In this document: one piece after another, positions 1-15,400 of the stretch | Layout: each line of letters starts with the position of its first letter | Numbering within the stretch: position 1 is the first letter of the stretch | Origin: a virus | Direction: 5' to 3' (one strand) | IMG/VR virus record: IMGVR_UViG_3300025073_001074 | Span: 1-26,362 of that record | Length of the DNA: 26,362 bases | Translations under genes and position numbers: made by a program | Notes under the pieces: model-generated | Seen by the model: only the letters and a program-made list of their open reading frames with translations | Told to the model about the DNA's origin: nothing | Databases searched by the model: none

Positions 1-372
1 TAAATTGTCCACGAATTCATCTATATTTTTTATATGAACAGCTTCATCTATCCATTCTTGAGCGCTACCCGGATTTCCGTCAACTTTAACTAATTTAGTA
101 AACGGAACTATATCCCAACCTAAAATTCCATCTATTTTAAAAGCAACAACTTCTCTTTTATATAATTCATTCTTTGGAACTAGCCTCCATTTAGAAATAT
201 GCTCATCTCTACCCAACTTTAGAATATACTCTTTGTCATCACTTAGTATAACGCGTTTACTTTTATTGACACCCTGCTTTAAGCCCCCTGTTGTAGCTGT
301 TTTCTCTGCGCTATCCGTTATATCTTCTATGTCTACAGATTTTAATATGTCTAAGAATTCATAATTTAACAT
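1..372 (-). CDS. PI3K-like / SCO1664-type atypical kinase, partial (C-terminus outside window)
   Basis: The first 124 codons are visible and the frame runs off the left edge. The ATG at 372 has GGAG ten bases upstream, inside the last codons of the preceding gene. After a variable leader, a Gly-rich stretch (residues 28-34, TGGLKQG) is followed by a beta-hairpin ending YILKLG, whose K52 sits where the phosphate-binding lysine would be. Then come KREVVAF (72-78) and GWDIVP (85-90). This order (Gly-rich turn, lysine strand, 'REvAAy', 'GWdlVPpT') matches the SCO1664/PI3-PI4-kinase-like family of atypical kinases. The catalytic loop and metal-binding motif lie outside the window, so activity and substrate (protein, lipid or small molecule) are unknown. 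A transferase of related fold is the main alternative. Confidence 0.55.
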   Translation of the reverse strand, partial: MLNYEFLDILKSVDIEDITDSAEKTATTGGLKQGVNKSKRVILSDDKEYILKLGRDEHISKWRLVPKNELYKREVVAFKIDGILGWDIVPFTKLVKVDGNPGSAQEWIDEAVHIKNIDEFVDNL

Positions 373-2148: not shown

Positions 2149-2829
2149 TTAAAAATTTGTAAGACAATAACCACAAAATCTTCCGCCACCTTGCTTTTGT
2201 TCTATATAACCCACTTTTCCACAAAAAATACACTTATTCTTAATTTCTATTTTTCCAAAAATAGAAATATCATTCCGTGATGCATTATTCTTAACCTCTT
2301 CTTTAGAGCTCACAAAAGAAGATAAATTTATAACTCTAGAGTTTTCTCTAGATAGAGCTCCAAAATGGTCTTCATATGCTGCTATTGCTAACATTACTGA
2401 AAAGAAGCTGTCTCCGTGTCCCATTGGAGTTTCAGGAGCATGTAAGTCATTTCGTACACACAATATCTGTTTTTCAAACCTGTCATCAGACAACAATCTT
2501 ATTTTTTTTTGTTCTATTAATTTTGAAAATGAATTAGCCATTCTTCTTTTGTTCACTTCAGAAAGCACTATTGGAATGCAAATTCTTTGAGGCAAATGCC
2601 GCTCTTCCATTTCACCTCTAGTATTATCATAATATAAATAGTCTATCTTGAAAAATTCAATCGCCTCTATAAAGTATTCTACTTGACGAGTGTAATCCCA
2701 TCCATCTAAAAATTTCTGATGAATTTGAGTTAAAATATTATCCATGCATTCGAATACAGAAATATGTGAGGGCGAACGTTTTTTACCAATGTCTACCCCA
2801 GCTACAACTGGACCTACTTTATTTATCAT
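2149..2829 (-). CDS. Terminase large subunit, nuclease domain as a separate gene
   Basis: The 226-aa protein matches the C-terminal RNase H-fold nuclease of phage large terminases. VAGVDIGKKRSPSH (D13) gives the first catalytic Asp, YYDNTRGE (D68) the second and GHGDSFFSVMLAIA (D140) the third. This domain cuts concatemeric DNA during headful or site-specific packaging. In most phages it is fused to the packaging ATPase, but here the ATPase half is encoded at 4130-5458 with three genes in between. After the nuclease a Ser/Asn-rich linker leads to a zinc-ribbon-like tail (C200, C203, C219, C222), an unusual addition. The ATG at 2829 has no clear SD. It overlaps the end of a 23-codon ORF (2819-2890), so start by coupling is possible. 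Confidence 0.88.
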   Translation of the reverse strand: MINKVGPVVAGVDIGKKRSPSHISVFECMDNILTQIHQKFLDGWDYTRQVEYFIEAIEFFKIDYLYYDNTRGEMEERHLPQRICIPIVLSEVNKRRMANSFSKLIEQKKIRLLSDDRFEKQILCVRNDLHAPETPMGHGDSFFSVMLAIAAYEDHFGALSRENSRVINLSSFVSSKEEVKNNASRNDISIFGKIEIKNKCIFCGKVGYIEQKQGGGRFCGYCLTNF

Positions 2830-2890
2830 AACTTTGTAGCAGAAGTGAGAATTGTGTGTTATTTAAAATATTACAATTTTCACAAAACAT
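2819..2890 (-). CDS. Possible tiny ORF (23 aa) overlapping the terminase nuclease start
   Basis: An ATG-initiated ORF of 23 codons begins MFCENC, a CxxC pair resembling the MKCESC start of the 87-aa protein upstream. It stops 11 bases inside the terminase nuclease gene. The SD is weak. It could be a translational-coupling leader for the nuclease gene, which has no obvious SD, or a decayed gene end. Existence as a real protein is uncertain. Confidence 0.2.
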   Translation of the reverse strand: MFCENCNILNNTQFSLLLQSYDK

Positions 2891-2933
2891 TTAATCTTAA
2901 AACCAATGACTTAACCTTTTGTCCATCCTGCAT
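2880..2933 (-). CDS. Possible leader ORF (17 aa)
   Basis: The ATG follows directly after the stop of the 87-aa gene, with GGAG five bases upstream. The 17-codon product begins MQDGQKVK and its TGA overlaps the next tiny ORF. With 2819-2890 it forms a chain of overlapping mini-ORFs across the 104-base gap before the terminase nuclease gene. In another frame the same DNA reads AGWTKG-stop, which resembles a terminase linker. A real small protein is possible but unproven. Confidence 0.2.
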   Translation of the reverse strand: MQDGQKVKSLVLRLNVL

Positions 2934-3197
2934 TTATCTCCATATATAATAAATAACAAATATAATAAAAAATAAGCATATAGCAAAGAATATATAGTTC
3001 TTAACTAAACCTAGTTTTTGAATTTTAGTCTTATTTATAATATTTGGCTTAACAATTGTAGCATTAATTATTGTCGGAAATGCACAGATTAAGTGTTTTT
3101 CAGAAAAATTTACTTTGTGAAAGTTGTGTATATGACTTTTTAAAGTATTTATGTTTTTATAGTTTTTACTATTTTTCCCGCAACTTTCACATTTCAT
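2934..3197 (-). CDS. Small membrane-anchored C2H2-finger-like protein (87 aa)
   Basis: The N-terminus has CESCGK followed by HIHNFH (C3, C6, H22, H26), a spacing like a single C2H2 zinc finger. The C-terminus (about residues 65-86) is a strongly hydrophobic run, FFAICLFFIIFVIYYIW, typical of one transmembrane helix. The product is probably a tail-anchored small protein with the finger in the cytoplasm. The gene starts inside the end of the RNase H gene (11-base overlap) and ends 104 bases before the terminase nuclease ORF. It is one of three genes separating the two terminase halves. No family is recognised. Confidence 0.5.
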   Translation of the reverse strand: MKCESCGKNSKNYKNINTLKSHIHNFHKVNFSEKHLICAFPTIINATIVKPNIINKTKIQKLGLVKNYIFFAICLFFIIFVIYYIWR

Positions 3198-3573
3198 TTA
3201 AGTTTTCCTTCTTAGCTTTTTCTAATAATTTGCCAGCTTCATTTTCTTTTCTAGAAACCCAAATAAAAGATTTATTAATTTCCGGATATTTTTCCCAAAT
3301 TATTTTTGCTAACTTTGCTAAATTTACTCTTGTTAATCTATATTTTTTATTTAATTGATTTACTATTAAAAGGCTGTCAGAGTATATTTCAGTAGAAATG
3401 TATTTATTCTTTAATGCATCTTCTAAAGCTAATATGATACCCAGATATTCAGCTTCGTTGCTAGTTTGTATTCTATTAAATTCTTCAATTTTTTGATAGC
3501 CATCTTCTCTTACAAAAGCACATCTTCCAAAGTTATTTTTTCCTTTTCCGGCGCCATCAGTAAAATATTTCAT
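3187..3573 (-). CDS. Ribonuclease HI-like protein
   Basis: The 128-aa protein shows the RNase H type 1 core: FTDGAGKG (D6), SNEAEYLGIILAL (E42), IYSDSLLIVNQL (D66) and a final WVSRKENEAGKLLE segment. The first three acidic residues are present. The fourth, usually the Asp of N-x-A-D, is Gly here (residue 114), a change that would weaken metal B binding unless another residue compensates. RNase HI removes RNA from RNA-DNA hybrids such as Okazaki primers, which fits a phage encoding its own polymerase. The start overlaps the HD gene's stop (ATGA). The gene lies between the two terminase halves, so it may have arrived as part of an insertion. Confidence 0.8.
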   Translation of the reverse strand: MKYFTDGAGKGKNNFGRCAFVREDGYQKIEEFNRIQTSNEAEYLGIILALEDALKNKYISTEIYSDSLLIVNQLNKKYRLTRVNLAKLAKIIWEKYPEINKSFIWVSRKENEAGKLLEKAKKENLNEM

Positions 3574-4121
3574 CTTTCAGTTAATTTATAAAAATTAAAT
3601 AAAAAATTTTCTTCAGCTTTCTCAGAAGTAGCCGAAACTATTTTATCTACTAAGGGTTCTTCAAATAAATTCCACATATTACTTTGAGACATCAAATCTC
3701 TAGCTTCAGTAGCTAATAAGATATTATCAGCTCTTTTTATTATTCTGTCATCAAATAGATAATTATGTCGTCTTGACGAAAGAAGAGAAGACACGCCAAA
3801 AGTAAGATATATGTAATCTTGTATTTTTCTCTCATATACTTTATATTCTGGAAACAGAGATTTAAAGGGACGAGTAATATCTGATAAATATGCTTCACTA
3901 GCATCATGCAATAATCCAGCTAATTTCTGTACTTTTGTTTCCAATATATCGGACACTCTTACAGAATGCTCAGCAACACTATAAAATTTATTGCAGTGTC
4001 CATTAAATCTGCAAGACAAACTTAAAGCATGCGCAATGTCTGTTATATCTATTTCATTGCTTTCTAGATCAATGAAATCAAATCTTTTTCCAGTAAAAGT
4101 TTCTATCCAAAAATTACTCAT
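3570..4121 (-). CDS. HD-domain phosphohydrolase (YfbR/DatZ-like nucleotidase)
   Basis: Numbering from the ATG at 4121, the 183-aa protein has an Arg/Gly segment (CRFNGH), SVAEHS (H52), LLHDASEAYLSDI (H72-D73) and KRADNILLATEARD (D132). These are the H...HD...D metal ligands of HD hydrolases. The 'LLHDASEAYLsDi.RP' form is common in phage relatives of 5'-deoxynucleotidase YfbR and of the dATP triphosphohydrolase DatZ. It probably dephosphorylates deoxynucleotides in the cytoplasm and shapes the dNTP pool. Substrate cannot be read from the sequence. The frame also opens at GTG 4136, but ATG 4121 has GGTGG/TAAG upstream and seems better. It directly follows the stop of the terminase ATPase gene. 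Confidence 0.8.
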   Translation of the reverse strand: MSNFWIETFTGKRFDFIDLESNEIDITDIAHALSLSCRFNGHCNKFYSVAEHSVRVSDILETKVQKLAGLLHDASEAYLSDITRPFKSLFPEYKVYERKIQDYIYLTFGVSSLLSSRRHNYLFDDRIIKRADNILLATEARDLMSQSNMWNLFEEPLVDKIVSATSEKAEENFLFNFYKLTER

Positions 4122-4129
4122 TTTTAAAC

Positions 4130-5458
4130 TTACCACCCGGGCATATTTATATTATATAAATTTCTATCAATGTTTTTATCAAGTTCTTCTCTAGAGAAAA
4201 AAGCTTCTGTAGATAACACTGGCGCTAGTTCAAATTCAGAAGCAAAAGCCTTTGCGCCAATTGTTTTTTTATGTTCCATTAATTTCTCTAAGCTAAATCC
4301 CTTTTCCCATAATACTTTTTTATCTGCTTGTTCTAATATTGGATTCAACGCCGGCATATACCGATATTTATATCTTGGATTTTCCCTAAGTTTAAACAAT
4401 AGATCAGAATAATCTTGTATAGTTCCAACAACCATGAGAAAACTACCTGGAATAGGAATATTGCTAATTTCTGCATTATAAAACTTTTCAATTTTATCTA
4501 ATTCTGGAAAAGTTAAAGGATTCTGTGGATCTGCCAAAATGTCATCACAATTATGATAAATAATACCCTTACCAACATATGAATTATCATCTTCTACTTC
4601 AAGATTGTATACATATCCTTCATACCAAGTATGAACTATTTTTTTCATTCTAGAATGCATAATATCATCTTCTAATCGCAATTCTCCCGCCGGAATCCAG
4701 CCTTCACTTGTCAAAACTGGATGAGTTTTTGTAATTCCAATTATCTCATTATTGTCTAAATATAATATAGTTATTTGCTCTTTTATATATCTATTAAAAA
4801 TATTTGTGACTTCTCTGTATCTATTTTTATGTGTTCGAACCATATCACCAGTTTGGATATCTTCTATATGTGTATATCCAGAATTAGTTAAAATTCTAGT
4901 TCCCGGAGTTAAGCAGATAGTCATGCCATAGCGTCCAGTATGAATACCTCTTTTAACACCGAAAATTCCACTAGAAATACTTCTAAATTGTTTTTGCCCA
5001 TTTTCATATAAAAAACTAGTGTTTGATTGCTTTTGTCTATCGACTAAACATTTGCTTAGTACTGGATTAGTGACCACGATTCTTTTTATATTTGATATGT
5101 GATATGTTGCTAGTTCGGCTTTATAGGAAATATAGACAAAGTCATCACTTAATCGTGCTTTTAACATTTTGTATAATACCGTAGCGTAAGATATAGTAGA
5201 TTTTAAATGAAATCTTGGTAATACCAAAACATACCATTTATCTTCAGCGATAGCTTCTTCAATATCTTGCGCGATTAAATGAATATGCCAAGTGTCAAAA
5301 TCAAATTCTGGAAAACTAAGAGAAAAAGTGTTTTGAATAAAGTTATCTAATGAAGACAAATCAGGTTCTAAAGAAATTTCTTTCTTCTGATTCATATTTT
5401 CATATAAAACAGTTAAAGCATGTTTAAAATTTTCTTCAGCATGTATGAGTTCTGTCAT
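4130..5458 (-). CDS. Terminase large subunit, ATPase domain, with a mini-intein
   Basis: This is the packaging motor ATPase. Walker A is LPRFHLKST, a common terminase variant. After splicing, Walker B reads GMTI-CDDIL, and VVGTIQD gives the coupling motif. The precursor is 442 aa from ATG 5458, and removing a 122-aa intein leaves about 320 aa. Together with the 226-aa nuclease gene at 2149-2829 this equals a normal large terminase of about 546 aa. I chose ATG 5458 because AAGGA lies seven bases upstream. An upstream ATG-ATG at 5500 would overlap the small-subunit gene by 29 bases. The protein stops after NINMPGW, where terminases normally continue through a linker into the nuclease, so the gene is split. 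It must assemble with the separate nuclease or rely on it in trans. Confidence 0.88.
   Translation of the reverse strand: MTELIHAEENFKHALTVLYENMNQKKEISLEPDLSSLDNFIQNTFSLSFPEFDFDTWHIHLIAQDIEEAIAEDKWYVLVLPRFHLKSTISYATVLYKMLKARLSDDFVYISYKAELATYHISNIKRIVVTNPVLSKCLVDRQKQSNTSFLYENGQKQFRSISSGIFGVKRGIHTGRYGMTICLTPGTRILTNSGYTHIEDIQTGDMVRTHKNRYREVTNIFNRYIKEQITILYLDNNEIIGITKTHPVLTSEGWIPAGELRLEDDIMHSRMKKIVHTWYEGYVYNLEVEDDNSYVGKGIIYHNCDDILADPQNPLTFPELDKIEKFYNAEISNIPIPGSFLMVVGTIQDYSDLLFKLRENPRYKYRYMPALNPILEQADKKVLWEKGFSLEKLMEHKKTIGAKAFASEFELAPVLSTEAFFSREELDKNIDRNLYNINMPGW
4550..4915 (-). other. Mini-intein (Hint domain, no endonuclease) inside terminase ATPase
   Basis: In-frame insertion of 122 residues from Cys (codon 4913-4915) to Asn (4550-4552), followed by Cys +1. 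Block A is CLTPGTRILT, block B ITKTHPVL (T-x-x-H), and the F/G end is VYNLEVEDDNSYVG...GIIYHN/C with the standard His-Asn pair. The short distance between blocks B and F leaves no room for a homing endonuclease. It sits immediately before the DD of Walker B, so the ATPase cannot work unsplit. All residues for normal class 1 splicing are present. Confidence 0.9.
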
Positions 5459-5471
5459 ATTAGAATCCTTG

Positions 5472-6050
5472 TTAGGATACTTGTGATACCTCCCCATCAA
5501 TTACACCTTCTGTTATCAATAATTTTTTATCTGACGACTTTTCGTATTTATCTAATCCAAGTAATTTAGCAAATCTGATTCTAATCCTTTCCCATAAATT
5601 ATCATCAGCTATTTCTTCTCTCAATATTCTACTCATCTCTGTAACAAAAGTAAGTTGAAAAGCTTCTTGTTTCAATTGCTTTTCTAATCTAACAGTATCC
5701 AGAAAAGTATCCACCGCGTCAGTAAATTTGTGTGGTTTCATCCCAGAATCTTTGAGAGCTTCTTCTATCTTATCTTTAATAATTTGCAGTGTTGCTAAAG
5801 TGTTTTCTGTATCTGCATTTGCATGACGCATAATTGTGCCAAGATTTTCTTTAGTTTGAGAATTTATAAAGTCTATTTTTTCTGCTCGCCAATTACCTTC
5901 TTTAATCCATCTAATCAAAGTAGAAACTGCAATTTCTAATTCATTAGCTATATCTATTTTATACTTCCCGCTGAAATATAGTAGTTTAGCCTTAGCTTTT
6001 AAAACATCATAGTCAGGCTTGCTTTTAATTTCATCGTTCACATTAGTCAT
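5472..6050 (-). CDS. Terminase small subunit-like HTH protein
   Basis: The 192-aa protein begins with a helix-turn-helix region (about residues 17-55, YDVLKAKAKLLYFSGKY then IANELEIAVSTLIRWI and GNW), typical of small terminase subunits that bind the packaging site. The rest is mainly helical, with a charged middle (residues 60-150) that could form the oligomerisation core. It lies directly upstream of the terminase ATPase gene, the usual small-large order. The ATG at 6050 overlaps the preceding gene's end and has no strong SD. A general transposase-like or regulatory HTH protein is the alternative, but position strongly favours terminase small subunit. Confidence 0.75.
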   Translation of the reverse strand: MTNVNDEIKSKPDYDVLKAKAKLLYFSGKYKIDIANELEIAVSTLIRWIKEGNWRAEKIDFINSQTKENLGTIMRHANADTENTLATLQIIKDKIEEALKDSGMKPHKFTDAVDTFLDTVRLEKQLKQEAFQLTFVTEMSRILREEIADDNLWERIRIRFAKLLGLDKYEKSSDKKLLITEGVIDGEVSQVS

Positions 6051-6282
6051 ATTTTTTATGCCATATTTTTTTAGTACTAAAAATTTTCATTTGAAACTCT
6101 TTCTTATTAATGTCTAATACGTCACATAGATAATCAATAAATGGCGATTTTAGAAATTGAGTGGCATCACTTTTATTATCATAATTATCAGAATGTAGAT
6201 CTAATATAGACAAACGTATCATTGCAGCTACTAAACTTAAGTAACCAAAGAATACATCTTCGTCATAATTTCCGATAATCAT
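6043..6282 (-). CDS. Hypothetical protein (79 aa)
   Basis: This is a small, probably helical, acidic-to-neutral protein with the start MIIGNYDEDVFFGYLSLV and no cysteines apart from one in the middle. No motif or membrane helix is clear. Its stop overlaps the start of the small terminase gene, implying coupled translation in the packaging gene set. No SD is obvious at its ATG. I do not recognise the family. Confidence 0.5.
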   Translation of the reverse strand: MIIGNYDEDVFFGYLSLVAAMIRLSILDLHSDNYDNKSDATQFLKSPFIDYLCDVLDINKKEFQMKIFSTKKIWHKKYD

Positions 6283-6291
6283 TGCATAAAA

Positions 6292-6666
6292 TTAAAAATT
6301 TGAATGTCCCTGCCCTACAAATCTCATCATATCTATGTGACCTTTTATCTTCTTATCCGAATAAGTAACACAAAATCCATTGGAATCAATACAAATTTCA
6401 TGCCTTTCGCATATGGTAGCTTTATTCCACAAACATTCCAAAGAATTACAACAAAAGATATTGCCTGTATTACTACAAATAACTCTTTTGATTTTAAATT
6501 TCAAATCTTCGTGTGTTTTTTCATCAAAATTAGGCTGTATAAGACACTCGCCATAATATTCTCCCGTTGTACCAATGGGAACATAATTTTTATGATATTT
6601 AAAATGATAGATATCATCAAGCTCTTTATAATTTTTACACTTGTCAAAGTTACAATAAATTTTCAT
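6292..6666 (-). CDS. Cysteine-rich hypothetical protein (124 aa)
   Basis: The 124-aa protein has many cysteines (CNFDKC at the N-terminus, then GEC, VIC, FCCNSLEC, TICERHEIC and FC), plus several histidines. This suggests one or two structural zinc sites, because phage cytoplasmic proteins rarely form disulfides. There is no signal peptide. The ATG at 6666 has AAGGTG upstream, a fair SD. It sits between the ribonucleotide reductase and the terminase genes. I do not recognise a family. Confidence 0.6.
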   Translation of the reverse strand: MKIYCNFDKCKNYKELDDIYHFKYHKNYVPIGTTGEYYGECLIQPNFDEKTHEDLKFKIKRVICSNTGNIFCCNSLECLWNKATICERHEICIDSNGFCVTYSDKKIKGHIDMMRFVGQGHSNF

Positions 6667-6678
6667 TTAAACACCTTT

Positions 6679-9600
6679 TTATGCAATATTACATTTTCCC
6701 CATCCACATGACGGACAATGGAAACAACCTTCTGAGAATACCAACGAAATATGACATTCAGGACAAGAATTATCTCCCGTAGTCATAACCTGTTTAGTTT
6801 TACAACCATCTCTAAATATGGTGACGCCATCACATTTTAAATCATATGCATCTTTAATTATTTTTTCTACATCAGACACAGTTGAATTATTTGGCATATT
6901 AATTGTTTTTGATATAGAATTATCTACATGTGCCTGGAATTTACTTTGAATATGTATATGATTTTCTGGTAACACTTCTAACGCTGTTATGAATATCTTT
7001 TGCCATTTCTCCGGAATTTCATTTATTCCCGTCGCGCGGCCTTCATTTTTTATGATTTTGTCTAATAATTCGATTGAGAAAAATCCTTCTCTTTTAGCAA
7101 TACTCTCAAATATTGGATTAACTGTAATCAATTCCTTTGCAGATAAAGTAGTTGCTCTTTTGAAGACTAAACCATAGTTTGGCTCTATGCCAGGAGAACA
7201 ATTAGCCAAAATAGAAATTTCTCCCGTGGGCGCAATTACAGTCAATGAAGCATTCCTAATTGGATCAGTATAAATTGAAATATTAAAATTTGGGAAACTC
7301 CCTCTCTCTTTAGCTAATTGTTCAGAAGCTTTTTTAGCCTCAAGATAAACAAACTCCATTAATTTGTCTACAAGTTTAATAGCTTCCATAGAATTATACG
7401 GTATTTCAAGCATATAAAGTAAATCTGCAAATCCCATTACCCCAAGGCCTATTTTCCTATTAGCAACTGTCATTTCTTTAATTTTTGGCAAAGGATAATC
7501 TGAAGCGTCAATAACATCATCTAAAAAATGAACCGCATTGATAATTGTTTTTTGCATAGCTGGCCAAGAGATTTGATTGTCTACAACAAATTTTGTCAAG
7601 TTAATACTGCCTAGAACACATGGCTCATTTGGTAATAAGCTCGTTTCACCACAGTCCCAGATAATAATCCCGCTTTGTTTTTCAGCTGAATTTGAAGTAA
7701 CTATAGCGTAATTTAAAAACTCTTCTACCGTTAGATCATAAACATCTTCAATTTTAGAAAATTCAATTGAAACAACTTTATGATTGTCTTTAATCTTTCT
7801 ATTTTTCTTCGATTTTAAACTAGCTTTAGCGGCTTTTATTTTATTCTGATGATCTAATTCTAAATTCTCTTTACGAAATTTTATTAGTCCGTTGCTAACT
7901 TTTTTTCTTGTTTCTAAACTAAGAGGAATTCCAGTTTTATTTATTTTATTAAAATTAATTATAGCACAATGCTTACAACGATATTCGCCATTAATATTAT
8001 TAACTTTTATTATTTTTATTTTTTTACAATCAATACAAAATATTTTAACTCTTTCTATTTTATTACCTTTTAATTTTTCAGAAATTATTCTTAATAGTTC
8101 ATAATTCTCTTTAGTTTTTCCTTTACAATGAGACTCTAAACCATTTTGATACCGGTTTAATAAAGTTTGTCTTTGTTTTTCTACTTGTTCTTGGGATAAT
8201 TTAACTCCAAATCTAGGATTATTTTCTCCTTTTGTATTATAAAATGAATTTCTTTTTTTGTATTCTTCAAATTTGCCTCTTAATTTTAATTTAAATAAGG
8301 GATTTTTTTCTCCTGAAATATCATGAATTTTTCTATGCTCTTCTATTGTTAAAATTTGTAAATTATCTTTCAAATTATTTAACCCATTATAATCTACATG
8401 ATGAATTACTTCATTTTTATCACAATTTCTTCCAAAATAAAATTCGCTAAGAAGTCTATGTTCAACCTTTCCAGCATGCCCACAATTAGAAGATTTCCAA
8501 TATTTTACAGTATTCCATTTACTTTTAACTCGATCAAATCTCATTAATGAATCACCAATATTTAAATCTTTTAATAATACTTTCTGATTATTTTGCAAAA
8601 TAAATTTGTGATCTTCAGTTGTTTCAACAAAAGAACCATCATCAAGAGTTACTTTAAATACTTTTTGATTTTCTCTAGTCTTTCTAACATTATAAGCTTT
8701 TCTAATTACCAATTTTCCTTCATTATCAGTGCAATATACTGGAAATTCCATTCCAAGTAGTTCTTTTATTGGTTTTGGTGAATCTCCAGCTATCATAACT
8801 AAAGTATCCCCTGTTATACAAGCATTTTTATACATTGGCCCTAAAGTAGGAGTTGGATTATTTTTATTGTATGTGTCAAAGAATACTACACCAGGATCAC
8901 CACTTTCCCAGGCACTCTGTGCAATTAAATTTAATAAATATCTGGCTCGCACTGAATCCACTTTTTTCTTAGTCCTGGGATTAATAAGTGGAAAATCAGT
9001 ATCTTTTGAAACACAAGACATAAACTTATCTGTAATAGCGACAGAGAGATTAAAGTTAGAAAACTTGCCCTCTTCTTTCTTGCAATTTATAAATTCTATA
9101 ATATCTGGATGGTCACATTTTAAAAGAGCAAGAGCTGCACCTCTTCTCATTCCGCCCTGTTTTACAGAATCAATAACTGAATTAAATACGGGCAAAAACC
9201 CTACTACACCACTGGATACTTTCCCAGTAGTTTTAACAATATCATTACGTGGTCTTAAATCAGAAAAATTCAGGCCTATGCCACCACCAGATTTAGTGAT
9301 AATTGCGCAATCCCGAGCCGTTGAAAAAATAGATTCAATAGAATCTTCTGGTGATAAAACATAACATGCAGCCAAGAAATTCAAATTTTCTATCCCCGCA
9401 TTAGACAAACATGGAATATTCGGGAAAAATACTTGGTTAGATAGCATATTATAAAATATTTTTTGCCATTTAATAGAATTTCCGCCATATCTTTTTTCTA
9501 TAGAAGAAATATATTTCGCTGTTCTTCTAAACATTTGTGATGGTGTTTCTTTTTTTCCGTCGCTTAGTAGCTTAAGATACCTTCCCTCAAGAAGACTTAC

Positions 9601-9945
9601 TGCATTTGGAGTTAGTTTTAATTCGTCATCTATATTAATAGCTGCTTTATATTCGCGAATATCAGAATGTTGCGCACGGTATAAAATATATTCTTTAATT
9701 ACTCTATATGTTGAAAATTTTATAAGATTCTTTTCTACAGCATCCTGAATATCTTCAACCTGGACTTCTTCTCGTCCATTAATTTCGCTAGTTACAATTT
9801 CAGTTATTTTTTTAGCCACATCTTCATTTATTTCATTGACAACCGTCATTGCTTTTAATACAGCAAAATTTATTTTATTGCTATCAAATTTTACAATACG
9901 ACCATCTCTTTTAATTACCCGTTTTATTAAACCAATATTACTCAT
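6679..9945 (-). CDS. nrdJ: Class II ribonucleoside reductase (NrdJ-type) with HNH intein
   Basis: The 1088-aa precursor holds an N-terminal ATP-cone (about residues 4-97) that would sense dATP/ATP. The ten-stranded reductase barrel follows: AACYV (C194), KSGGGIGLNFSDLRP (218-232), GGMRRGAALALL and HPDI. The active site NA/CGE (N374, C765, E767) and EPCVLGSINL (C776) come next. The end is a zinc-ribbon tail with CPECH...CPSCGWGKC, typical of adenosylcobalamin-dependent class II enzymes. C194 and C776 would be the redox pair and C765 the radical cysteine. The enzyme makes deoxynucleotides without an NrdB partner, and none is seen here. A 389-aa intein (residues 376-764) must be removed, leaving about 699 aa. 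The start has AAAGGG upstream and overlaps the preceding gene by eight bases. Confidence 0.92.
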   Translation of the reverse strand: MSNIGLIKRVIKRDGRIVKFDSNKINFAVLKAMTVVNEINEDVAKKITEIVTSEINGREEVQVEDIQDAVEKNLIKFSTYRVIKEYILYRAQHSDIREYKAAINIDDELKLTPNAVSLLEGRYLKLLSDGKKETPSQMFRRTAKYISSIEKRYGGNSIKWQKIFYNMLSNQVFFPNIPCLSNAGIENLNFLAACYVLSPEDSIESIFSTARDCAIITKSGGGIGLNFSDLRPRNDIVKTTGKVSSGVVGFLPVFNSVIDSVKQGGMRRGAALALLKCDHPDIIEFINCKKEEGKFSNFNLSVAITDKFMSCVSKDTDFPLINPRTKKKVDSVRARYLLNLIAQSAWESGDPGVVFFDTYNKNNPTPTLGPMYKNACITGDTLVMIAGDSPKPIKELLGMEFPVYCTDNEGKLVIRKAYNVRKTRENQKVFKVTLDDGSFVETTEDHKFILQNNQKVLLKDLNIGDSLMRFDRVKSKWNTVKYWKSSNCGHAGKVEHRLLSEFYFGRNCDKNEVIHHVDYNGLNNLKDNLQILTIEEHRKIHDISGEKNPLFKLKLRGKFEEYKKRNSFYNTKGENNPRFGVKLSQEQVEKQRQTLLNRYQNGLESHCKGKTKENYELLRIISEKLKGNKIERVKIFCIDCKKIKIIKVNNINGEYRCKHCAIINFNKINKTGIPLSLETRKKVSNGLIKFRKENLELDHQNKIKAAKASLKSKKNRKIKDNHKVVSIEFSKIEDVYDLTVEEFLNYAIVTSNSAEKQSGIIIWDCGETSLLPNEPCVLGSINLTKFVVDNQISWPAMQKTIINAVHFLDDVIDASDYPLPKIKEMTVANRKIGLGVMGFADLLYMLEIPYNSMEAIKLVDKLMEFVYLEAKKASEQLAKERGSFPNFNISIYTDPIRNASLTVIAPTGEISILANCSPGIEPNYGLVFKRATTLSAKELITVNPIFESIAKREGFFSIELLDKIIKNEGRATGINEIPEKWQKIFITALEVLPENHIHIQSKFQAHVDNSISKTINMPNNSTVSDVEKIIKDAYDLKCDGVTIFRDGCKTKQVMTTGDNSCPECHISLVFSEGCFHCPSCGWGKCNIA
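7654..8820 (-). other. HNH homing-endonuclease intein in ribonucleotide reductase
   Basis: Residues 376-764 of the precursor run from Cys1 (CITGDTLVMI, block A) through TTEDHKFIL (block B, T-x-x-H) to a C-terminal splicing half with VYDLTVEEFLNYAI (block F) and GIIIWD/C. Between them lies an HNH nuclease: VIHHVDYNGLNNLKDNLQIL...EEHRKIH (about 513-541). A NUMOD3-like NNPRFGVKLSQEQ segment and a CIDC...CKHC zinc ribbon (about 637-660) follow. The site is directly before the radical cysteine of the reductase. The last two intein residues are Trp-Asp instead of His-Asn, an atypical end. Splicing with C-terminal Asp is known for a few inteins. Confidence 0.9.
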
Positions 9946-14049: not shown

Positions 14050-14259
14050 CTATTTAAACTCTAGTTCATTTTTTAAAATATTTTGAACAGTCTCTTTATT
14101 TGCTTTCTCTATATCAGCTGCTTTAATATGCACAACTTTTGATATCCCATATTCATTTAACAAGAATTTATCTCTTTTCTCATTCGCTTTTTTATAATGT
14201 TGTTTACCCTCACATTCTACAACAATTTGCAGCTCTGAAAGAATATTATTTACAAACAC
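14050..14259 (-). pseudogene. C-terminal fragment of a Vsr/DUF559-like nuclease
   Basis: The frame encodes ILSELQIVVECEGKQHYK, then a conserved RDKFLLNEYGISKVVHIKA and a helical end. This aligns with the second half of a small PD-(D/E)XK nuclease of the Vsr/DUF559 type (E of VECEG, H of QHY, D of the RD pair). It begins with a GTG at 14259 overlapping the preceding gene's stop by 14 bases. The matching N-terminal part appears at 15433-15570, on the other side of the 384-aa endonuclease gene. An insertion splitting one nuclease gene explains this well. Confidence 0.6.
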
Positions 14260-15400
14260 AAACGCCCAGCCTATTCATAAATTTTCCACAAAATTTACAT
14301 TTATTTTCCTTAATCCTAGTTTTTTGTATTAAAACCTCTTCAGGACTTAAATAGTCTTCGTATTTTCCTCTTTTTACACCCTTTTCAGCTAAACTTATTT
14401 TTTTGCCAATTTCTGTTAATTTAGCAGAAGTACTTTTTGTCAATCCAGTATTCCAAGATTTAGAATTCTTATGATAACAATTAATATTACAATATTTTCT
14501 TTTACTGCTTTTCGTAACAAGAAATTCAATTCCACAACCAATACAAGCTACATTTTTAGATTTTTTGATAGATATTCTTGGGCCACGCGCTTTAGAAGCA
14601 CAAGACTGTGAACAATATTGTCGAATATCTTTTTCAGAAATATACAGAACATTACCACAAGCGGGACAAATAAAACGTCTAATTTGCATATCGACCCAGT
14701 ATCTTAACCCAGTAGTTTTATCAACTTTAGAAGTTTTACCTTTCTTCCAGCTATAAAAATCTTTTGTGCATGTAGCTTTATATAAATTTTCAGGACAAAA
14801 TTCTTTTCTTTCAATACTAGATTCCGAGAATAGATTAATAAAAGAAATAATATTTTTTCTAACAACTTCTTGGTTATCTTTTTTCATTAAAAAATCAGCT
14901 TCTATTCTTAAAATGGGCAACTTAAATTTTTCCATTAAAAAAGAATCTCTTCTCATATCTCTATTTTTAGCATGAAATGGGCCATCAGCTTCAAAACCTA
15001 AATGAAGCTTAGGCAAATAACAATCAAGAAAAAAGCCACCAAATTCAACTTCTTTCTCAACTAGGTATCCCATATCTTGAAGAATTTCTTCTAATTTTAA
15101 ATGTGGTTTTGTATTTGTAAATACGGGAGAAATACCATTAATAACTCTAGTTTTAAATTTATTTCGCATATTTAGCTTTTGTTTGTCATTCCATTTATGC
15201 CCGTAATTTGGATTATCTTTTCCTAAATTTTTTAATCTCTGTTTTTGTCTTTGCGCATCAGTCCAATAATATGTAGCATGTCCCATTTGGCTTTTACTTT
15301 GCTTATTTCTAATTTCTAGAGATCTAACTACTCCATATCTCTCAGCATATTTTATTCCCTTAAGAACTGAAATCTTATGTTTTATTTCTTCTTTTGACAA
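14246..15400 (-). CDS. Vsr-like homing-type endonuclease with zinc fingers
   Basis: The 384-aa protein has a NUMOD3-like GKDNPNYGHKWNDKQ segment (60-74). A Vsr/EDxHD-type nuclease domain follows (about 98-185): FFLDCYLPKLHLGFEADGPF (D126, E137, D139), HAKN (H143) and RRD (D152). Three Cys pairs at the C-terminus, at 245/248-263/267, 286/289-304/308 and 368/371-381/383, form zinc-ribbon-like modules, probably for DNA binding. This is the layout of free-standing phage homing endonucleases related to I-Bth0305I. The start is TTG 15400 with no strong SD. Flanking nuclease fragments suggest that it inserted into a host gene. A resolvase-like or restriction function is possible but less likely. Confidence 0.75.
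   Translation of the reverse strand: MSKEEIKHKISVLKGIKYAERYGVVRSLEIRNKQSKSQMGHATYYWTDAQRQKQRLKNLGKDNPNYGHKWNDKQKLNMRNKFKTRVINGISPVFTNTKPHLKLEEILQDMGYLVEKEVEFGGFFLDCYLPKLHLGFEADGPFHAKNRDMRRDSFLMEKFKLPILRIEADFLMKKDNQEVVRKNIISFINLFSESSIERKEFCPENLYKATCTKDFYSWKKGKTSKVDKTTGLRYWVDMQIRRFICPACGNVLYISEKDIRQYCSQSCASKARGPRISIKKSKNVACIGCGIEFLVTKSSKRKYCNINCYHKNSKSWNTGLTKSTSAKLTEIGKKISLAEKGVKRGKYEDYLSPEEVLIQKTRIKENKCKFCGKFMNRLGVCVCK

What the first reader, a model, noticed from the sequence alone, without database searches (positions are those of the whole stretch)
2149..5458. Terminase large subunit split into ATPase and nuclease genes by a three-gene block
The ATPase gene stops after NINMPGW exactly where the linker to the nuclease should begin, and the nuclease gene starts close to its first catalytic strand (VAGVDIGKK). 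Between them are HD hydrolase, RNase H and a small membrane protein. The DNA around both ends shows a similar short sequence: ATGCCCGGGTGG at the ATPase end and ATGCAGGATGG at 2923-2933, which reads AGWTKG in one frame. This suggests that the block inserted into, and duplicated, the linker. The two halves may work as separate proteins.
Basis: partly seen in the sequence, partly recalled or inferred. Interest (0 to 1): 0.7.

Follow-up and report, generated by a model that had tools for sequence, protein, structure and literature searches.

The report
Packaging motor gene split in two

Summary
The split is real and not an artefact. The window's TerL ATPase (5458-4130, minus strand) ends at ...NINMPGW*. 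The RNase H-like nuclease (2829-2149) starts seven residues before its first catalytic strand. An HD dNMP-phosphatase-like gene, an RNase H gene and a small Zn/membrane protein gene lie between them.

Three other contigs (L204, L216, L217) are split at the same linker without the block. Their cistrons lie 2-6 nt apart, and all four split ATPases end in PG+F/W/L. Both halves are under purifying selection (dN/dS about 0.1-0.25). So the fission is old and kept, and the block most likely entered later between two genes that were already separate. It probably did not insert into, or duplicate, the linker: the reported repeat is no better than chance. No intron model matches, and 2-6 nt cannot hold an intron.

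Best reading: a two-chain terminase, with ATPase and free nuclease assembling on the motor. Re-association is inferred. New variant of a known kind (split phage genes).

The parts
4130..5458 (-). TerL ATPase half (ATG start; longer TTG start possible at 5500); Walker A-like LPRFHLKST, Walker B MTI|CDDIL interrupted by the intein, motif VVGT; ends NINMPGW*
   Evidence: phrog_38 E 3.9e-26; alignment with full-length TerLs
4550..4915 (-). 122-aa mini-intein (CLTPGT...IIYHN|C), no endonuclease domain
   Evidence: Pfam Intein_splicing 1.7e-11; boundaries by comparison with intein-free relatives
3570..4121 (-). HD-domain dNMP-phosphatase-like gene (GTG start possible at 4136, overlapping the ATPase stop)
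   Evidence: phrog_318 1.2e-57
3187..3573 (-). RNase H type I
   Evidence: Pfam RVT_3 1.6e-10, RNase_H 1.5e-8; NCBIfam RNAseHI below cut-off
2934..3197 (-). small protein, CxxC/HxxxxxH motif plus C-terminal hydrophobic stretch; no family
   Evidence: sequence; no family hit
2819..2890 (-). possible 23-codon ORF MFCENCNILNNTQFSLLLQSYDK* whose stop overlaps the nuclease start (possible translational coupling; inference)
   Evidence: sequence
2149..2829 (-). TerL nuclease half: RNase H-like fold, AGVDIGKK / YYDNTRGEMEER / GHGDSF acid motifs, C-terminal zinc ribbon
   Evidence: alignments, AlphaFold model, PDB match to G20c TerL nuclease 5m1f
5472..6050 (-). TerS-like small terminase; syntenic upstream neighbour
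   Evidence: phrog_509/2538, Terminase_5; order conserved in L126, L127, L203-L205, L216
1807..2139 (-). conserved downstream neighbour; directly follows fused TerL in L126 and L127

Best explanation
The large terminase of this phage is made as two polypeptides: an ATPase/translocase (after excision of a mini-intein) and a free RNase H-like nuclease with a zinc ribbon. An ancestor of a small phage clade acquired a stop and restart in the inter-domain linker, leaving two adjacent cistrons 2-6 nt apart, probably translated by stop-start coupling. In the window's lineage a block of three small genes then came to lie between them. The two chains most likely re-associate on the portal so that the ATPase ring translocates DNA and the nuclease docks to cut it. 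Shown: the split, the shared breakpoint, the retained motifs, purifying selection on both halves (in the split relatives), and fused syntenic relatives. Inferred: a single fission event, the order fission then block, coupling, protein-protein assembly and intein splicing.
For: 205 related loci (145 below 95% identity) have ATPase and nuclease in one frame; the first 115 loci were found with a nuclease-only motif, so the search did not favour fusion. L126 and L127 share gene order g6043-TerS-TerL-g1807 with a fused TerL and no block. The same split without the block is seen in L204 (6-nt gap), L216 and L217 (2-nt gaps). C-termini MPGW/VPGFG/VPGF/IPGLG occur in the four split proteins; PG occurs in 1 of 89 fused linkers, and there at another position. 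The nuclease tree groups the four split copies (96/94). dN/dS between split copies is about 0.1-0.25 in both halves. The nuclease folds alone as a TerL nuclease.
Against: The ATPase tree does not recover WIN with L204/L216/L217 (AU p 0.04-0.09; joint data p 0.52), so WIN's fission could be independent, or one half recombinant. No expression or interaction data. The WIN nuclease lacks the YWW[RK] leader shared by the other three, and its Shine-Dalgarno signal is weak. The genome is incomplete, so an intact second TerL is not excluded.
Confidence: 0.75

Rival explanations
1. The three-gene block inserted directly into an intact terL linker in the window's lineage, causing the split independently of L204/L216/L217.
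For: The ATPase tree separates WIN from the other split copies (p-AU 0.04-0.09); fused TerL in syntenic L126/L127.
Against: Same breakpoint and PG+hydrophobic C-terminus as three block-free split relatives; nuclease tree 96/94 groups them; no duplicated linker.
Confidence: 0.17
2. A self-splicing intron (or trans-splicing) restores a single TerL mRNA, as in intron-split terL genes of other phages and spliced herpesvirus UL15.
For: terL is a known intron target (PMC12363816, PMC11878797); herpesvirus UL15 has genes inside its intron (PMC3079670).
Against: No intron match at E<=1 over the window or E<=10 in the block; 2-6 nt gaps in three relatives cannot hold an intron; no homing endonuclease in the block; stop codons directly follow the ATPase.
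Confidence: 0.03
3. Assembly error or decaying terL, with an intact terminase elsewhere in the genome.
For: The genome is a 26-kb fragment; the overlapping contig may come from the same population.
Against: Three further contigs with the same split; all motifs kept and dN/dS about 0.1-0.25 in the split relatives; no second TerL in about 37 kb.
Confidence: 0.05

Closest known systems
Full-length phage TerL (phrog_38 family; syntenic relatives L126, L127)
   Same: All ATPase and nuclease motifs, zinc ribbon, synteny with TerS; 45-46% identity to the two halves joined
   Different: Two ORFs instead of one; intein; three-gene block between the halves
Split core genes of T4-like phages (Aeh1 nrdA/mobE, T4 topoisomerase genes with mobA, gp43A/B of phage 25; PMC2988022)
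   Same: Essential enzyme encoded by two cistrons that must re-associate
   Different: No homing endonuclease or untranslated spacer at the break; different gene
Intron-split terL (Jug phages PMC12363816; Bastillevirinae PMC11878797; Campylobacter phage IBB_35 PMC3322345)
   Same: terL ORF in pieces; inteins nearby
   Different: There splicing, shown or inferred, restores one protein; here no intron, and block-free relatives have 2-6 nt gaps
Parabacteroides phage phiPDS1 gp45/gp46 (PMC10773633)
   Same: TerL annotated as ATPase and nuclease CDSs
   Different: My reading shows the first nuclease strand in another frame upstream of gp46, so it looks like a frameshift; the authors themselves suspect assembly or codon table
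Herpesvirus UL15 (PMC3079670)
   Same: Terminase coding halves separated by other genes
   Different: Spliced to one protein; genes lie antisense in the intron

Membership tests
Phage large terminase (TerL) | P-loop ATPase with Walker A, Walker B and coupling motif | tested here: met
   LPRFHLKST, CDDIL after intein removal, VVGT; invariant across the alignment; phrog_38
Phage large terminase (TerL) | RNase H-like nuclease with catalytic acids | tested here: met
   AGVD, YYDNTRGE, GHGD kept; fold match 5m1f 1.8e-7
Phage large terminase (TerL) | Both domains on one polypeptide | tested here: not met
   Two ORFs in WIN, L204, L216, L217; one ORF in 205 relatives
Homing-endonuclease-split gene (Aeh1 nrdA type) | Endonuclease gene between the halves | tested here: not met
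   Block encodes HD, RNase H and a small protein
Intron-split terL | Group I or II intron core between the exons | tested here: not met
   No Rfam intron match; 2-6 nt gaps in relatives
Mini-intein | Hint splicing domain, Cys1, terminal HN and Cys+1, no endonuclease | tested here: met
   Pfam 1.7e-11; CLTPGT...YHN|C, 122 aa
Mini-intein | Splicing activity | not testable with these tools
   Needs expression

The most novel reading that the evidence does not exclude
A phage clade with a true two-chain packaging motor in which the nuclease is a separate docking subunit that can be exchanged independently of the ATPase. The nuclease tree groups all four split copies (96/94), while the ATPase tree puts L204/L216/L217 with fused relatives and WIN elsewhere, which would fit reassortment of the free nuclease gene.
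Probability: 0.2. Interest if true: 0.8.

Novelty: new variant of a known kind. Interest (0 to 1): 0.6.

Why it matters
TerL is among the most conserved proteins of tailed phages and herpesviruses. In the T4 model, force comes from the nuclease domain pulling DNA towards the ATPase domain across a linker, and the isolated P22 nuclease is largely inactive without its ATPase (review PMC7617512). A natural, selected, two-chain TerL makes directly testable whether covalent linkage is needed for translocation and for nuclease control. It also warns that annotation misses the free nuclease: neither the L204 nor the L216 nuclease matched any PHROG at E<=0.001, and the window's nuclease reached only 0.006.

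Tried and rejected
Linker duplication (not beyond chance). Intron. Second TerL (none in the held records). Named phage relatives: no match for the nuclease halves, only remote DAC16-type for the ATPase. L096 appeared split but is a frameshift inside the nuclease. HD relatives do not show the HD-RNase H pair near terL, so the block's origin stays unknown; none of its three genes was found near terL in about 185 relatives examined. Early trees without L216/L217 left the position of WIN open. The AlphaFold model of the intein-bearing ATPase was mediocre (pLDDT 69, shallow alignment) and is not used as evidence. DAC16 and phiPDS1 were inspected as named comparators. The 'nuc' query wrongly held two joined records; it was rerun cleanly and only the rerun is used.

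Full report
Observation. The minus strand of the window carries a TerL ATPase (4130-5458, possible TTG start at 5500), then HD (3570-4121), RNase H (3187-3573) and a small Zn/TM protein (2934-3197), then a separate nuclease (2149-2829). The ATPase ends NINMPGW* and the nuclease begins MINKVGPVVAGVDIGKK. Aligned with full-length relatives, the two pieces together give a complete linker with nothing lost. The record is a 26-kb virus fragment. An overlapping contig (L001) is identical over 10.8 kb and has the same split, but may be the same population.

The intein. It contains a 122-residue mini-intein at the Walker B strand (Pfam 1.7e-11; boundaries), which must splice for ATPase function. Relatives L203 and L205 carry larger HNH-containing inteins within a few codons of the same place; L126, L127, L201, L204, L216 and L217 have none there.

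Relatives are fused. A scan for the nuclease motif alone (DIGKKxxPxxH) and alignment-guided scans gave 205 loci (145 below 95% identity) in which ATPase and nuclease share one open frame. L126 and L127 are the key comparators: they have the same gene order around TerL (g6043, TerS, TerL, g1807), an intact 546-548-aa TerL, no intein and no block. The block is therefore derived.

The split is shared. L204 has ATPase 7914-8861 ending NYVVPGFG*, then 6 nt, then a nuclease at 8868-9677. L216 (4967-5926 / 5929-6705) and L217 (281-1291 / 1294-2079) have 2-nt gaps. They come from three metagenome datasets other than that of L001. All four split ATPases end in PG followed by F, W or L. PG is found in 1 of 89 fused linkers, and there not at this position. 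The three block-free copies form a 100/100 clade yet have diverged to 55-73% nuclease identity. dN/dS among them is about 0.10-0.25 (dS is near saturation, so approximate) for both halves. The split has thus been kept under selection. Sequencing or assembly error and introns are not viable for them.

Phylogeny. The nuclease tree puts WIN with L204/L216/L217 (96/94). The ATPase tree places those three with the L127 group and leaves WIN unresolved; forcing the split clade costs little (AU p 0.09 in the final set, 0.04 and 0.07 for WIN+L204 in earlier sets), and the joint data are indifferent (p 0.52). One ancestral fission is the simplest reading, but independent fission, or reassortment of the free nuclease, remains open.

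Order of events. Because adjacent split genes exist without the block, and the window shares their breakpoint and C-terminus, the block most likely entered between two genes that were already separate. The proposed linker duplication fails: local alignment of the two ends is average, the 12-mer match is 3 edits (4% for this hand-picked word, 41% for random words against the same stretch), and no fused linker contains GWTKG. GGGTGG at the ATPase end also doubles as a Shine-Dalgarno-like site for the HD gene (-7.2 kcal/mol; inference).

Mechanism. The nuclease half folds on its own as a complete TerL nuclease plus zinc ribbon (pLDDT 87, beta-1 at residue 8; best PDB hits G20c/P74-26 TerL nuclease). 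Stop-start distances of 2-6 nt in the relatives suggest translational coupling. In the window a possible 23-codon ORF (2819-2890) overlaps the nuclease start in the same manner (inference). I infer that the two chains re-associate on the motor, as split NrdA, gp43A/B and T4 topoisomerase do (PMC2988022). Neither binding nor packaging is shown.

Known context. terL split by group I introns (PMC12363816, PMC11878797, PMC3322345), herpesvirus UL15 with genes inside its intron (PMC3079670) and phiPDS1's two CDSs (PMC10773633; on inspection a frameshift) are the nearest cases. In the searchable papers I found no report of a clean, clade-wide two-cistron TerL, but most subscription papers are not held.

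Noticed in passing
window 6679-9945 (-): B12-dependent ribonucleotide reductase (NrdJ-like) with an intein of roughly 390 aa containing an HNH endonuclease; L204's homologue looks interrupted at more than one place.
   Followed up: partly
L203, L205, window 4550-4915: Inteins at the TerL Walker B strand sit 1-3 codons apart in related phages instead of at one identical site; L203 and L201 have a further intein in the nuclease at GHxD|SFW.
   Followed up: partly
window 1-372 (-), continuing in L001 10458-12113: 551-aa protein joining a SCO1664/kinase-like domain to a weak SPP1 gp7 minor-head-protein match.
   Followed up: no
window plus L001/L214 (about 37 kb): No portal gene found, although it follows g1807 closely in L126, L204 and L205; it may lie elsewhere or be too divergent.
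   Followed up: partly
L204 8868, L216 5929, L217 1294: Free nucleases of the block-free split phages share a YWW[RK] leader that WIN lacks; possible docking motif.
   Followed up: no
window 14246-15400 (-): Zn-finger/NUMOD-like probable homing endonuclease next to a short endonuclease-like ORF (14050-14259).
   Followed up: no
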